A stretch of 47,191 bases of DNA, taken from an uncultured Eubacteriales bacterium (GTDB lineage Bacteria > Bacillota > Clostridia > Christensenellales > Aristaeellaceae). Location: assembly GCA_902790495.1 (NCBI GenBank), contig CADASK010000016.1, positions 1 through 47,191 of the forward strand, in the 5' to 3' direction. A program made the translations under genes and the position numbers. Shown piece by piece: positions 161 through 43,232 of the stretch (position 1 is its first letter; each line of letters starts with the position of its first letter). A model generated the notes under the pieces. That model ran no database searches and had not been told where the DNA came from. It worked only from the letters and a program-made list of their open reading frames with translations.

Positions 161-215
161 GCGAAGGTTTGCAAAGGGCGATCGCAAAGCCCTTTGCCCG
201 CGCCCGCAGGCGCGG
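161..215 (+). repeat. Dual-hairpin element, copy 1
   Basis: Hairpin A has arms GCAAAGGGC (171-179) and GCCCTTTGC (189-197) around loop GATCGCAAA. Hairpin B follows directly (198-215), CCGCGCC-CGCA-GGCGCGG. This is the reference form of an element found eleven times here. No U-run follows, so it does not look like a terminator. Confidence 0.9.
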
Positions 216-312
216 AATCCCTGCTGTCTGAACGATGGATGCATTGTAGTATAGGATAAGCAGCCTGAACTATGGCAAGAGCTTCCATTTCATGCTATGA
301 TGAGACAAGAGA

Positions 313-329
313 GTGGGCAGCCTGCCCAC
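313..329. promoter_or_regulatory. Perfect inverted repeat upstream of the HTH gene, possible operator
   Basis: GTGGGCA-GCC-TGCCCAC is a perfect 7-bp inverted repeat about 60 bp before the HTH regulator start. The same arm sequence recurs in the terminator stem that closes the operon (2461-2483). It could be an autoregulatory operator. It could also be unrelated; there is no experimental support in the sequence. Confidence 0.3.
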
Positions 330-390
330 CTGAAAAAGCGCGCGGCGTGCTATCATACCATCGGGAAGAACAGGAGGGGAAGATTGCGCC

Positions 391-837
391 ATGGAGGGAG
401 ACAAGCGACTGACGACCGACGAGCTGCTGAGGCTGCTCTTCAAAGAGCGAAGCCTGGAGCAGTTTTTGCAGCGGAATGAGTCGGCGTACCTGAACACCAC
501 CTTCGCGGATTACCTCTCCGCCTGGTGCAGGCGGGAGCACGAGGTGCCCGAGCAGCTGATCCGCCGCGCGAACCTGGAGAAATCCTTCGGCCATCAGCTC
601 TTCACCGGCAAGCGCAACCCCTCGCGGGACACGGTGATCAAGCTGGCCTTCGCCATGCGGGCCGACGTGGCCCAGACCCAGGAGATGCTGAAGATTGCCC
701 GCAAGAGCGTCCTCTATCCGCGCATCAAGCGGGACACGGTCATCATCTATTGCCTGCACAACCATGTCTCCCTGGTGGACACCGAGCTCATTCTGGAAGA
801 CCTCAATCTTCCGATCCTGGGAGGGAGAGACAAATGA
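391..837 (+). CDS. HTH (XRE-like) regulator paired with a Ser/Thr kinase
   Basis: This 148-aa cytoplasmic protein has a helix-turn-helix-like stretch at about residues 52-90 (LIRRANLEKSFGHQLFTGKR), with the S-x-G-x-x-x-x-G-K-R-x-P pattern of lambda-repressor-like folds. An N-terminal helical segment precedes it. AGGAGGGG lies 11-18 nt before the ATG. Its stop overlaps the kinase start (ATGA at 834-837), so the two are translationally coupled and very likely act together. A plausible role is a DNA-binding or adaptor substrate of the kinase (inference). I know similar small HTH proteins beside kinases in Clostridia but no established function. Confidence 0.8.
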   Translation: MEGDKRLTTDELLRLLFKERSLEQFLQRNESAYLNTTFADYLSAWCRREHEVPEQLIRRANLEKSFGHQLFTGKRNPSRDTVIKLAFAMRADVAQTQEMLKIARKSVLYPRIKRDTVIIYCLHNHVSLVDTELILEDLNLPILGGRDK

Positions 838-40525: not shown

Positions 40526-41758
40526 ATGCCGTTTTACGATCAGCCCAAAAACAAAGGCCGCCGTCCCAATCCCGCCCGTGGCACCTGGGAGGAGGAGGGC
40601 TCCCGCTATTCCGACGCGCCCCGCCGCCGCTTTGGCCCGGACGCGGAGGATGATTCCCCCTACCGCAGCCCCCGCGGCCCGCGCCGTCCCCGCCCGGAGG
40701 GCTTTGGCCCCCGCTCCGGCGAGCACAGGCAGGGCGGCTATGCCGGCCCCAGCGACCGCAGGCCCGGCAGCGGCCGTTCCGCCCACGGCGAGGACAGCCG
40801 CCGCTCCTACGGCGACAGCCGCACCCGCGATTTCCGGGACAGCCGGGACAACCGGGACAGCCGTTCTGGCCGCAGCGACCACAGCGACCGCTATAGCCGG
40901 AACGACCGCGACGACCGCTTCCGCCGTCCGCGCCCGGAGACCGGCGTGGAAAATGACAAGCCCCAGAAGAGCTACCTGGATTTCGAGCATGTGGCCGAGC
41001 CCGCGCCCGTGCGCCCGGCGGTGAACGAAGCCCCCGAGAATCTGCTCTCCGGCCGCAACCCGATCCGTGAGGCCCTCAAGAGCGGCCGCGACATCGAGAA
41101 GCTGCTGGTGGCCCGCGGCGAGCTGTCCGGCTCCGCGCGGCAGATCGTGCAGATGGCGAAGGAAGCCCACGTGCCCGTGCAGGAGGTGGAGAAGACCCGC
41201 CTGGACGAGATCACGCCCCATCACCAGGGCATGGTGGCCTTCGTCTCCGCCTACAGCTACTCCACCGTGGAGGAGATGCTGGACGACGCCGCGGCGAAGG
41301 GGGAGGATCCCTTCCTCGTCATCCTGGACGGCGTGACCGATCCCCAGAACCTCGGCGCGGTGATCCGCAGCGCGGAGTGCGTGGGCGCCCACGGCGTCAT
41401 CGTCCGCGAGCGGCGCGGCGTGGGCCTGACCCCCGCCGCCGTGAAGGCCTCCGCCGGGGCCATCGAGCACATGCGTGTGGCCCGCGTCACCAACCTCAAC
41501 CGCGAGATCGAGGAGCTGAAGAAGCGCGGCGTGTGGGTCTATGCCGTCACCATGGACGGCGAGGATTATGAGAAGGTCGATTTCCGCGGCGGCGTCGCCC
41601 TGGTCATCGGCAGTGAGGGCGAGGGCATCAGCCGTCTCACCCTCGAGAAGTGCGACCATCGGGTATCCCTGCCCATGAAGGGCGTCATCGACAGCCTGAA
41701 CGCCTCCGTGGCGGCGGGCGTGGTGATGTACAGGGTGCTCTCGTCCAGGAGGTCATGA
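40526..41758 (+). CDS. rlmB: 23S rRNA (guanosine 2'-O)-methyltransferase with long disordered N-terminus
   Basis: This 410-aa protein contains an intact SpoU-type methyltransferase from about residue 173 (LLSGRNPIREAL; DGVTDPQNLGAVIRSAECVG; LVIGSEGEGIS; SLPMKGVIDSLNASVAAGV, the knot motifs). Residues 1-170 are an Arg/Ser/Asp/Gly-rich low-complexity tail (RDFRDSRDNRDSRSGRSDHS), roughly doubling the usual length of about 240-250. The enzyme modifies 23S rRNA. The tail probably adds RNA contact or clustering (inference). AAGGAG precedes the ATG; the stop overlaps yacP. Confidence 0.94.
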   Translation: MPFYDQPKNKGRRPNPARGTWEEEGSRYSDAPRRRFGPDAEDDSPYRSPRGPRRPRPEGFGPRSGEHRQGGYAGPSDRRPGSGRSAHGEDSRRSYGDSRTRDFRDSRDNRDSRSGRSDHSDRYSRNDRDDRFRRPRPETGVENDKPQKSYLDFEHVAEPAPVRPAVNEAPENLLSGRNPIREALKSGRDIEKLLVARGELSGSARQIVQMAKEAHVPVQEVEKTRLDEITPHHQGMVAFVSAYSYSTVEEMLDDAAAKGEDPFLVILDGVTDPQNLGAVIRSAECVGAHGVIVRERRGVGLTPAAVKASAGAIEHMRVARVTNLNREIEELKKRGVWVYAVTMDGEDYEKVDFRGGVALVIGSEGEGISRLTLEKCDHRVSLPMKGVIDSLNASVAAGVVMYRVLSSRRS

Positions 41759-42486
41759 AGCCCCTGCTGATCGTCGATGGCTACAATGTCATCGGCGCGT
41801 GGAAGGAAGCCAAGGACCGCGCCTGGTCGATGGACGAGAGCCGCGACCAGCTGGCCCGCCGCCTGGAGGATTTCGCCGGGTACGCGGGCGAGGAGATCGT
41901 GCTGGTGTTCGACGGCTACCTCTCCGACCGCAAGACCCGCACCGAGGAGGAGCACGGCGGGGTGACCACCGTGTTCACGAAGCACGCGGAGACGGCGGAC
42001 AGCTACATCGAGCGGCTGGTGGCGGAGACCCCGCGCTACCGCTCGGTGCGCGTGGCCACCTCCGACGGCCTGGAGCAGTCGCAGGTGCTCTCCACCGGCG
42101 CGACCCGCCTGACCTCGCGGGAGCTGCTGCGCGAGATGAGCCAGGCGCGGCAGAGCGGCCTCACCGGCGCGGAGACGCGGGCCGGCACCCAGCGCAGCCC
42201 CATCGGCGCGCGGCTGCCCGGAACCGTGCTCAGCGCGCTGGAGGAGATGCGCCGCGGCAGCGGCACGCCCGACGAGCAGCCGGAGCAGAGGCAGATCAGG
42301 AAGCCCGCGGCATCAGCCCAGGAAAGAACCCGTCACAAAGGAGAACAGCATGGACAGCGAGGACAGGGCGGACAGGAAGAACGAGACAGAAGGAATCATC
42401 CCGCCGGAGGACGAAACGGAGGACGTGGGGATGATGGACGCTCCAGGCCCGGAGAGCGGGGCAGGCGCGGAGCCCGAAGAGGATGA
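41755..42486 (+). CDS. yacP: YacP-like NYN-domain ribonuclease (Rae1 family)
   Basis: This 243-aa protein overlaps the rlmB stop by ATGA, with AGGAGG just before the ATG. The NYN (PIN-like) domain covers about residues 1-168: LLIVDGYNVIGAWKEAK, EIVLVFDGYLSDRKTR, TADSYIERLVAETP and VRVATSDGLEQSQVLSTGA hold its acidic residues. In Bacillus, Rae1 cleaves mRNA on the ribosome. The family is usually about 170 aa; here a basic Arg/Gly-rich tail adds about 70. Its last 45 residues are read in another frame from the start of sigH. Confidence 0.9.
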   Translation: MKPLLIVDGYNVIGAWKEAKDRAWSMDESRDQLARRLEDFAGYAGEEIVLVFDGYLSDRKTRTEEEHGGVTTVFTKHAETADSYIERLVAETPRYRSVRVATSDGLEQSQVLSTGATRLTSRELLREMSQARQSGLTGAETRAGTQRSPIGARLPGTVLSALEEMRRGSGTPDEQPEQRQIRKPAASAQERTRHKGEQHGQRGQGGQEERDRRNHPAGGRNGGRGDDGRSRPGERGRRGARRG

Positions 42487-43141
42487 AGGCGTGCCCGTGG
42501 CCGCCAGCCGTTTTGACGCGCGCTTTGCCGGCATGAGCGACGAGCGCGTGGTGGAGCTGTGCCACCAGGGCAACGCCGAGGCCATGGAGTACCTGCTGGA
42601 CAAATACAAGAACTTCGTGCGCTCCAAGGCCCGCAGCTACTTCCTGATCGGCGCGGATCATGAGGACATCGTGCAGGAGGGGATGATCGGCCTGTACAAG
42701 GCCATCCGCGATTACCGCGCGGACAAGCTCTCCTCCTTCCGCGCCTTCGCGGAGCTGTGCATCACCCGGCAGATCATCACGGCCATCAAGACCGCGACCC
42801 GCCAGAAGCACATCCCGCTCAACAGCTACGTCTCCCTCAACAAGCCCCTGTACGACGACGAGTCCGACCGCACGCTGCTGGACGTGATCATCGAGGGCCG
42901 GGTGGCGAACCCGGAGGAGCTGATCATCAGCCAGGAGGACCTCAAGCGCATCAACGCCCAGATCAGCGAGTCCCTCTCCGGCCTGGAGCAGGAGGTGCTG
43001 CAGGCCTACCTGGACGGCAAGAGCTACCAGGAGATCGCGGCCAAGCTGGGCCGCCATGTGAAGTCCATCGACAACGCCCTCCAGCGCGTCAAGCGCAAGC
43101 TCGAGAAGTTCCTGGAGGAAGTGGAGATGGAGGGCGAATAA
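42350..43141 (+). CDS. sigH: RNA polymerase sigma factor SigH
   Basis: This 263-aa sigma-70-family protein has region 2 (MEYLLDKYKNFVRSKARSYF, ADHEDIVQEGMIGLYKAIR) and region 4 HTH (LSGLEQEVLQAYLDGKSYQE, LGRHVKSIDNALQRVKRKL), with the ITAIKTATRQKHIPLNSYVS segment typical of SigH. In Firmicutes it governs the transition to stationary phase, competence and early sporulation genes. An acidic extension of about 58 residues precedes the core. The start has AAAGGAG 7 nt upstream and lies 137 bp inside yacP. Confidence 0.95.
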   Translation: MDSEDRADRKNETEGIIPPEDETEDVGMMDAPGPESGAGAEPEEDEGVPVAASRFDARFAGMSDERVVELCHQGNAEAMEYLLDKYKNFVRSKARSYFLIGADHEDIVQEGMIGLYKAIRDYRADKLSSFRAFAELCITRQIITAIKTATRQKHIPLNSYVSLNKPLYDDESDRTLLDVIIEGRVANPEELIISQEDLKRINAQISESLSGLEQEVLQAYLDGKSYQEIAAKLGRHVKSIDNALQRVKRKLEKFLEEVEMEGE

Positions 43142-43172
43142 AGCGGCCTTCATCCTTTTCTCAATAGCATGG

Positions 43173-43232
43173 TGGCGAAGGGGTTCCGGGGGTGATCGCA
43201 AAGCCCCGGGTCGGCCCGCAGGCCGAAACCTC
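43173..43232 (+). repeat. Dual-hairpin element, copy 11 (divergent)
   Basis: The loop TGATCGCAAA is kept, but hairpin A is CCGGGG/CCCCGG with a bulge, and hairpin B is shortened to CGGCC-CGCA-GGCCG. Both stems have changed on both arms. Confidence 0.8.

What the first reader, a model, noticed from the sequence alone, without database searches (positions are those of the whole stretch)
161..43232. Eleven copies of a two-hairpin intergenic element with paired stem changes
Copies at 161, 6027, 10403(-), 11988, 20321, 20443, 25552, 27828, 28536(-), 32535(-) and 43173 share loop GATCGCAAA and a following CCGCGCC-CGCA-GGCGCGG hairpin. The first stem has six different sequences (GCAAAGGGC, GTCAGGGGC, GCAGGGGGC, GTTAGGGGC, GGAGGGGGC, CCAAAGGGC), each matched by its complement on the other arm. 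Random decay would break pairing, so a folded form is maintained, with a constant loop that a protein or RNA could read. There is no U-run and both orientations occur, which argues against plain terminators. The element may be a REP/BIME-like mobile unit, an RNA-processing site, or the target of an unknown binding protein. I cannot name a described family.
Basis: seen in the sequence. Interest (0 to 1): 0.8.

Follow-up and report, generated by a model that had tools for sequence, protein, structure and literature searches.

The report
Scattered repeat folding into triplex pseudoknot
A short stretch of DNA, copied hundreds of times between the genes of some gut Clostridia, keeps the same knotted single-strand fold although its letters change, which suggests a mobile repeat recognised by its shape rather than by its sequence.

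Summary
The window holds eleven copies; a general pattern finds 343 short-form copies in this genome, in both directions, nearly all between genes (101 of 105 examined). Relatives in the same bacterial family carry 0 to 426. In 441 distinct copies, the base before CGAAG at the 5' end pairs with a base in the first hairpin's loop (434 of 441; C-G 336, G-C 95), giving an H-type pseudoknot. The linker between them mirrors the hairpin's purine strand: G faces G, T or A faces A, and its length follows the stem's. This is the signature of an antiparallel purine-motif triple helix; shuffles reach it 1 in 100,000, 0 in 20,000 and 0 in 2,000. 27 of 118 parsed copies carry a 60-66 nt extra domain in the loop; at two loci a close relative differs by exactly 65 nt there. 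No Rfam match; Y1 transposase, reverse transcriptase and TnpB domains were not found in this 94.5%-complete genome. Best reading: a REP/REPIN-like non-autonomous mobile repeat, read as a folded single strand by an unidentified enzyme. The fold rests on sequence evidence; mobility and enzyme are inferred.

The parts
161..221 (+). short-form copy; S1 161-163 with 183-185 (pseudoknot), linker 165-170, P2 171-179/189-197, loop 180-188, P3 198-204/209-215 with loop 205-208, tail 216-221
6028..6088 (+). short-form copy, P2 GTCAGGGGC/GCCCCTGAC
10401..10461 (-). short-form copy, P2 GGAGGGGGC/GCCCCCTCC
11989..12049 (+). short-form copy; the close relative G010 has the long form here, 65 nt longer at the loop, in near-identical flanks
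20321..20381 (+). short-form copy, followed directly by a different repeat
20442..20502 (+). short-form copy with unlike P2 arms (CCAAAGGGC/GCCCCCTGC), probably a recombinant
25553..25613 (+). short-form copy, P2 GTTAGGGGC/GCCCCTAAC
27827..27887 (+). short-form copy with the swapped pseudoknot pair: CCG at the 5' end with CGG in the loop (GATCGGAAA); absent at the matching place in G010
28534..28659 (-). long-form copy; G010 has the short form here
28576..28640 (-). 65-nt extra loop domain of the long form
32532..32652 (-). long-form copy with a 60-nt loop domain
43175..43233 (+). divergent short-form copy, P3 CGGCC-CGCA-GGCCG, imperfect P2

Best explanation
A non-autonomous, REP/REPIN-like mobile repeat. 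Its active form is probably the + strand as a single strand: a 5' XCG pairs with CGX' in the loop of a 7-9 bp purine/pyrimidine stem (H-type pseudoknot); the linker between them lies in that stem's deep groove as an antiparallel purine-motif third strand (G.G-C, T.A-T, A.A-T); a second, freely varying hairpin, mostly with a CGCA loop, follows. An enzyme acting in trans would recognise this shape plus the constant letters (CGAAG, GANCGNAAAG) and copy the unit into intergenic DNA. Shown by sequence: copy number, patchiness, both stems, the pseudoknot end pair, the linker rule, inverted pairing. Inferred: that it moves, that the folding molecule is single-stranded DNA rather than RNA, and that an enzyme exists.
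For: Counts by one general pattern: 343 here, 426, 311 and 311 in three relatives, 0 or 1 in three genomes of the same genus. Own-genome families differ from those of relatives in P3 and in the pseudoknot pair, as expected from separate amplification. Pseudoknot end pair kept in 434 of 441 copies, with both G-C and C-G inside five separate stem families. Linker rule: 44 of 44 positions in 11 families (1 of 100,000 shuffles); 169 of 202 in 57 strings (0 of 20,000); 30 families 0.897 against 0.704 shuffled (0 of 2,000). Linker/stem lengths 6/9, 5/8, 4/7 in 395 of 441 copies. Inverted neighbours outnumber direct ones, 105 of 139 distinct pairs under 350 bp. Intergenic, promoter-avoiding, close to orientation-neutral. 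The core is also on viral-collection contigs, 13 stretches.
Against: No enzyme found: Y1_Tnp, RVT_1 and the TnpB domain are absent here. No target-site duplication. The two presence/absence differences examined against G010 are not clean insertions; extra bases do not align. No full-length parent with a gene was seen in the 445 kb scanned. The RNA energy model prefers linker-tail pairing over a free linker in 3 of 4 copies, though that pairing does not covary. The two inner pseudoknot pairs hardly vary, so they add no covariation support. Within this genome recombination between copies plainly happens (mosaic arms).
Confidence: 0.5

Rival explanations
1. Old repeats that no longer move; stems stay matched because copies are rewritten by gene conversion or recombination between copies.
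For: Unlike-arm mosaics exist; at two G000/G010 loci one stem family has been replaced by another between alignable flanks; the 65-nt loop difference could be conversion from a long copy.
Against: Conversion does not by itself explain matched changes of linker, stem and pseudoknot in families of other genera, nor copy numbers from 0 to 426 within one genus.
Confidence: 0.18
2. A cis-acting RNA element of the host (mRNA end protection, pausing or processing) formed in transcripts.
For: Copies sit near gene ends: convergent gaps are enriched (17 of 100 placed copies in 9.4% of gap bases) and divergent gaps depleted (8 of 100 in 23.3%). RNA folding z-scores are -2.9 to -3.6 in four copies.
Against: Little orientation bias in tandem gaps (40 to 35; 15 to 10); patchy among close relatives; the linker rule is antiparallel to the purine strand, the kind known from DNA purine-motif triplexes (recalled).
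Confidence: 0.14
3. A binding site for a chromosome-organising or repair protein that reads an extruded cruciform or H-DNA-like form.
For: Mirror-symmetric purine tract, constant loop letters, high number of intergenic copies.
Against: Genomes of the same genus with 0 or 1 copies exist, so no general chromosome role; no candidate protein was tested.
Confidence: 0.12

Closest known systems
REP sequences and REPINs (GTAG- and CGTC-tagged palindromic repeats)
   Same: High copy number, short, intergenic, often downstream of genes, palindromic with paired changes, often as inverted pairs; CGTC REPs also lack a dedicated transposase (passages of PMC3733652; REPIN organisation, passages of PMC3116915).
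   Different: No GTAG or CGTC tag at the stem foot; two unlike hairpins in one unit; pseudoknot; linker-stem mirror rule; no Y1 transposase in this genome.
MITEs and IS200/IS605-derived non-autonomous elements
   Same: Short, many copies, no gene, subterminal hairpins in the IS200/605 case (recalled).
   Different: No target duplication, no parent element in the 445 kb scanned, no Y1 or TnpB domain here.
H-type pseudoknots with major-groove triples (telomerase RNA, SAM-II; recalled)
   Same: Linker L1 crosses the deep groove of S2 and contacts its pairs.
   Different: Here the purines are in the 5' strand and the match is antiparallel G.G-C, T.A-T, A.A-T, as in DNA purine-motif triplexes (recalled), in a dispersed repeat.

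Membership tests
REP / REPIN | GTAG or CGTC tetranucleotide unpaired at the stem foot | tested here: not met
   40 aligned copies have CGAAG or a close variant on that side and no GTAG or CGTC there
REP / REPIN | RAYT (Y1 transposase) in the genome or next to copies | tested here: not met
   0 in G000; absent in 10 of 12 element-rich genomes, present in G068 and G120; these genomes are 66-97% complete
REP / REPIN | high copy number in extragenic space | tested here: met
   343 copies; 4 of 105 overlap gene calls
REP / REPIN | inverted doublets at a regular spacing | tested here: inconclusive
   105 of 139 close pairs are inverted; regular spacing (86-91 bp, 33 of 49) in the named-MAG loci, mostly one MAG; own genome 10 of 13 inverted, no fixed spacing
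MITE | target-site duplication | tested here: not met
   112 copies: mean longest direct match 4.56, shuffled 4.53
MITE | autonomous parent with the same ends | tested here: inconclusive
   none in 445 kb of 2.47 Mb
RNA-guided (TnpB) mobile element | TnpB-like nuclease in genome | tested here: not met
   PF07282: 0 of 22 genomes over cut-off, one below it (G027)
Retroelement | reverse transcriptase in genome | tested here: not met
   PF00078 absent in 6 of 12 element-rich genomes including this one, present in the other 6
Described RNA family | Rfam match | tested here: not met
   gathering scan of the window and permissive scans of two stretches
H-type pseudoknot | S1/S2 pairing with covariation on both | tested here: met
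   S2 five pairs with both-sided change; S1 end pair GC 19, CG 16, UG 1, other 4, inner two S1 pairs without covariation; 434 of 441 at the end pair
Purine-motif triplex | third strand antiparallel to the purine strand, G on G and T or A on A | tested here: met
   by sequence only, no physical test

The most novel reading that the evidence does not exclude
A natural mobile repeat whose recognition depends on a single DNA strand folded into a pseudoknot locked by a purine-motif triple helix, so that evolution has preserved base triples (linker, purine and pyrimidine changing together) in hundreds of copies across genera, moved by an enzyme of a kind not yet described.
Probability: 0.3. Interest if true: 0.9.

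Novelty: new variant of a known kind. Interest (0 to 1): 0.7.

Why it matters
Base-triple covariation in a dispersed DNA repeat would be direct evolutionary evidence that a triplex-bearing fold is selected in cells, which to my knowledge is usually argued from sequence propensity or test-tube work. The element also gives an orphan case (many copies, no Y1, RT or TnpB found in this host) that makes the question 'what moves transposase-less REPs?' testable in a defined group of gut bacteria.

Tried and rejected
Basal stem P1 between the linker and the AAYCC tail: rejected as conserved, 0.817 paired against 0.836 shuffled (993 of 1,000 shuffles at least as high), although the energy model draws it in 3 of 4 copies. 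Outer flank stem and target duplication: no excess. Fourth pseudoknot pair A-U: not kept, loop base 3 is T 394, C 36, G 9, A 2, so S1 is 3 bp. An autonomous copy with a gene in the loop: none in 445 kb. A gene family flanked by copies: the top cluster (13 of 94 members flanked on both sides) is, by my judgement and without a test, open frames read through repeat arrays; of the others shown, none has more than 3 members flanked on both sides, and those I looked at are one locus seen in overlapping loci. Y1, RT, TnpB: see Membership tests. Occurrence outside the family: 391 genomes of the class, 7 with the pattern; apart from this genome all six are single hits whose strings lack the stem pattern; only one other genome of the own family (G046, no hit) was in that draw. 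Literature: searches returned no paper; one search returned two that I saw only in the listing.

Checks that weaken the linker test: the 3-nt centre used for even-length strings was chosen after seeing them. In one search I left out five listed strings that did not look like the element; one search puts them back (169 of 202, shuffled mean 132.5, 0 of 20,000). Forcing a 2-nt centre on all 57 gives 127 of 202 against 109.9 (1 of 20,000). Odd lengths only, with the rule fixed beforehand: 67 of 94 against 51.2 (0 of 20,000, n=27). Four of the 52 strings were also in the first test. The 3' stem arm was not seen for these strings, and one search lists only the first places of each genome. The copy finder demands a near-perfect P2, so P2 pairing in the 441 set is not independent evidence; it does not select X, X' or the linker letters. 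One search used 330 of 441 copies and dropped 111 whose P3, lengths or tail did not parse. The parsed set of 118 demanded at least 7 of 9 stem pairs.
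Full report
1. Observation. The eleven copies exist at the stated places. GATCGCAAA occurs 10 times in the window against 0.38 expected; the copy at 27827 has GATCGGAAA instead. The exact 17-mer core occurs 225 times in this 2.47 Mb genome, 114 on one strand and 111 on the other, with 0 for the reversed pattern. A general short-form pattern finds 343. No Rfam family reaches its gathering score at any copy in the window, and permissive scans of two stretches gave only weak hits far below the gathering scores.

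2. Anatomy. The unit is about 61 nt: X-CGAAG, a linker that mostly ends in T, a 7-9 bp stem P2, loop GA-N-CG-X'-AAA, the other P2 arm, a hairpin P3 with mostly a CGCA loop (222 of 330 parsed; GTGA 57), then an AAYCC-like tail. On 40 equal-length copies from several genomes 98.3% of cells pair, with both-sided changes at ten of 19 pairs; the covariation score is 0.412 against 0.152 in shuffles (0 of 500), and 0.02-0.10 when partners are slid. P3 takes 44 distinct arm pairs in 330 parsed copies.

3. Pseudoknot. Both G-C and C-G occur inside five separate stem families, so the link is not only subfamily descent. The inner two pairs hardly vary, and the fourth possible pair is not kept. The result is an H-type pseudoknot with a 3-bp S1, the linker as L1, P2 as S2 and AAA as L3.

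4. Linker rule. Read backwards, the linker matches the P2 5' arm: G opposite G, T or A opposite A, for example GGTTT|CC|AAAGG, GGGGT|CC|AGGGG, GGAGT|CC|AGAGG. Linker (counted with its AG) and stem lengths go together: 6/9 in 337, 5/8 in 37, 4/7 in 21 of 441 copies; the remaining 46 have imperfect stems or other parses. The T next to the stem also faces C in two families. Test 1: 11 families with 9-bp stems and at least two copies, leaving out the first position, 44 of 44 positions, 1 of 100,000 permutations as good. Test 2: 57 strings from the places listed, most from other genera, 169 of 202 positions, shuffled mean 132.5, highest 157, 0 of 20,000; restricting or fixing the rule weakens but does not remove the signal (see Tried and rejected). 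Test 3: 30 families, 0.897 against 0.704, 0 of 2,000. Controls on the 52-string set: shifting the register by -1 or +1 gives 0.48 and 0.72, and the parallel reading 106 of 188, against 167 of 188. The alternative use of the linker, pairing with the tail, shows no covariation. Antiparallel G.G-C, T.A-T and A.A-T is the purine motif known from DNA triplexes (recalled). L1 of an H-type pseudoknot runs antiparallel to the 5' strand of S2 (recalled geometry), so the rule is sterically sensible.

5. Long form. 27 of 118 parsed copies here carry 60-66 extra nt between the P2 5' arm and GATCG, with a hairpin whose arms also change together in several copies. Against the close relative G010, the site at 11989 is short here and long there, and the site at 28534 is long here and short there, each by exactly 65 nt in near-identical flanks. 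Gene conversion between copies, or a precise gain and loss of the domain, would both explain this. Other inserts occur in relatives: a short one in the P2 3' arm in G002 and a different loop insert in G004.

6. Setting. Of 105 copies in 445 kb, 4 (all long-form) overlap gene calls made by my own gene finder, 1 lies at an edge, 40 point with and 35 against tandem genes, 17 lie in convergent and 8 in divergent gaps; convergent gaps are 9.4% and divergent 23.3% of gap bases. In 151 kb of G001 and G002: 15, 10, 10 and 3, with 9 at edges and 0 in genes. Flanks show an A-rich stretch about 10 nt upstream, no target duplication and no flank pairing. Distinct neighbour pairs under 350 bp: 67 with 5' ends facing, 38 with 3' ends facing, 19 and 15 direct. 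The regular 86-91 bp spacing (33 of 49 in the named-MAG loci) seems mainly from one MAG: 13 of the 14 printed examples lie on SVHA01 contigs.

7. Distribution. In 250 genomes of the bacterial family, 74 hold the general pattern (19 of 50 genera); highest counts 426 (G001), 343 (own), 311 (G002), 311 (G035), 100 (G044); three reversed-pattern hits over all 250 by my count of the listing, so single hits may be chance. In the class, 391 genomes: none but this one looks real, and only one further genome of the own family was drawn. Contig lengths suggest that G010 is the MAG CAMNLM01 and G035 is SVHA01 (inference).

8. Enzyme. Y1_Tnp is absent here and in 10 of 12 element-rich genomes (present in G068, G120); in the genus it is in 3 of 12. 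RVT_1 is absent in 6 of 12 element-rich genomes, this one included. The TnpB domain is absent over cut-off in all 22. These genomes are 66-97% complete, so a single absence proves little.

9. Verdict. The fold is the firm result; a REP-like mobile repeat is the most likely kind. REP and REPIN papers were seen as passages only (PMC3733652, PMC8266576, PMC3116915).

Noticed in passing
window 20376-20421: A different short repeat (CCCTCTCAGTC...GACAGCTCTCCC..GGGAGAGCC) abuts the element's P3 directly; the same junction is seen in L012 and L031.
   Followed up: no
window 9116-9352: Cobalamin riboswitch, 62.4 bits.
   Followed up: no
window 46732-46852 and 47071-47191: 121-nt direct repeat, 98% identical, at the contig end.
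   Followed up: no
L127, L130, L131, L140, L160 and others (SVHA01): Inverted pairs of the element about a similar 86-91 bp spacer, as if the pair were the amplified unit.
   Followed up: partly
L050:1780-2080 and 2330-2680 against L074: Flanking genes are similar or identical in G000 and G010, but the element-bearing intergenic stretch is replaced by one with another stem family.
   Followed up: partly
L243-L255: The core lies on viral-collection contigs, 13 stretches; whether these are real phages was not checked.
   Followed up: no
L086:4385-5288: Six model hits within about 900 bp in G002, one with a stem insert.
   Followed up: no
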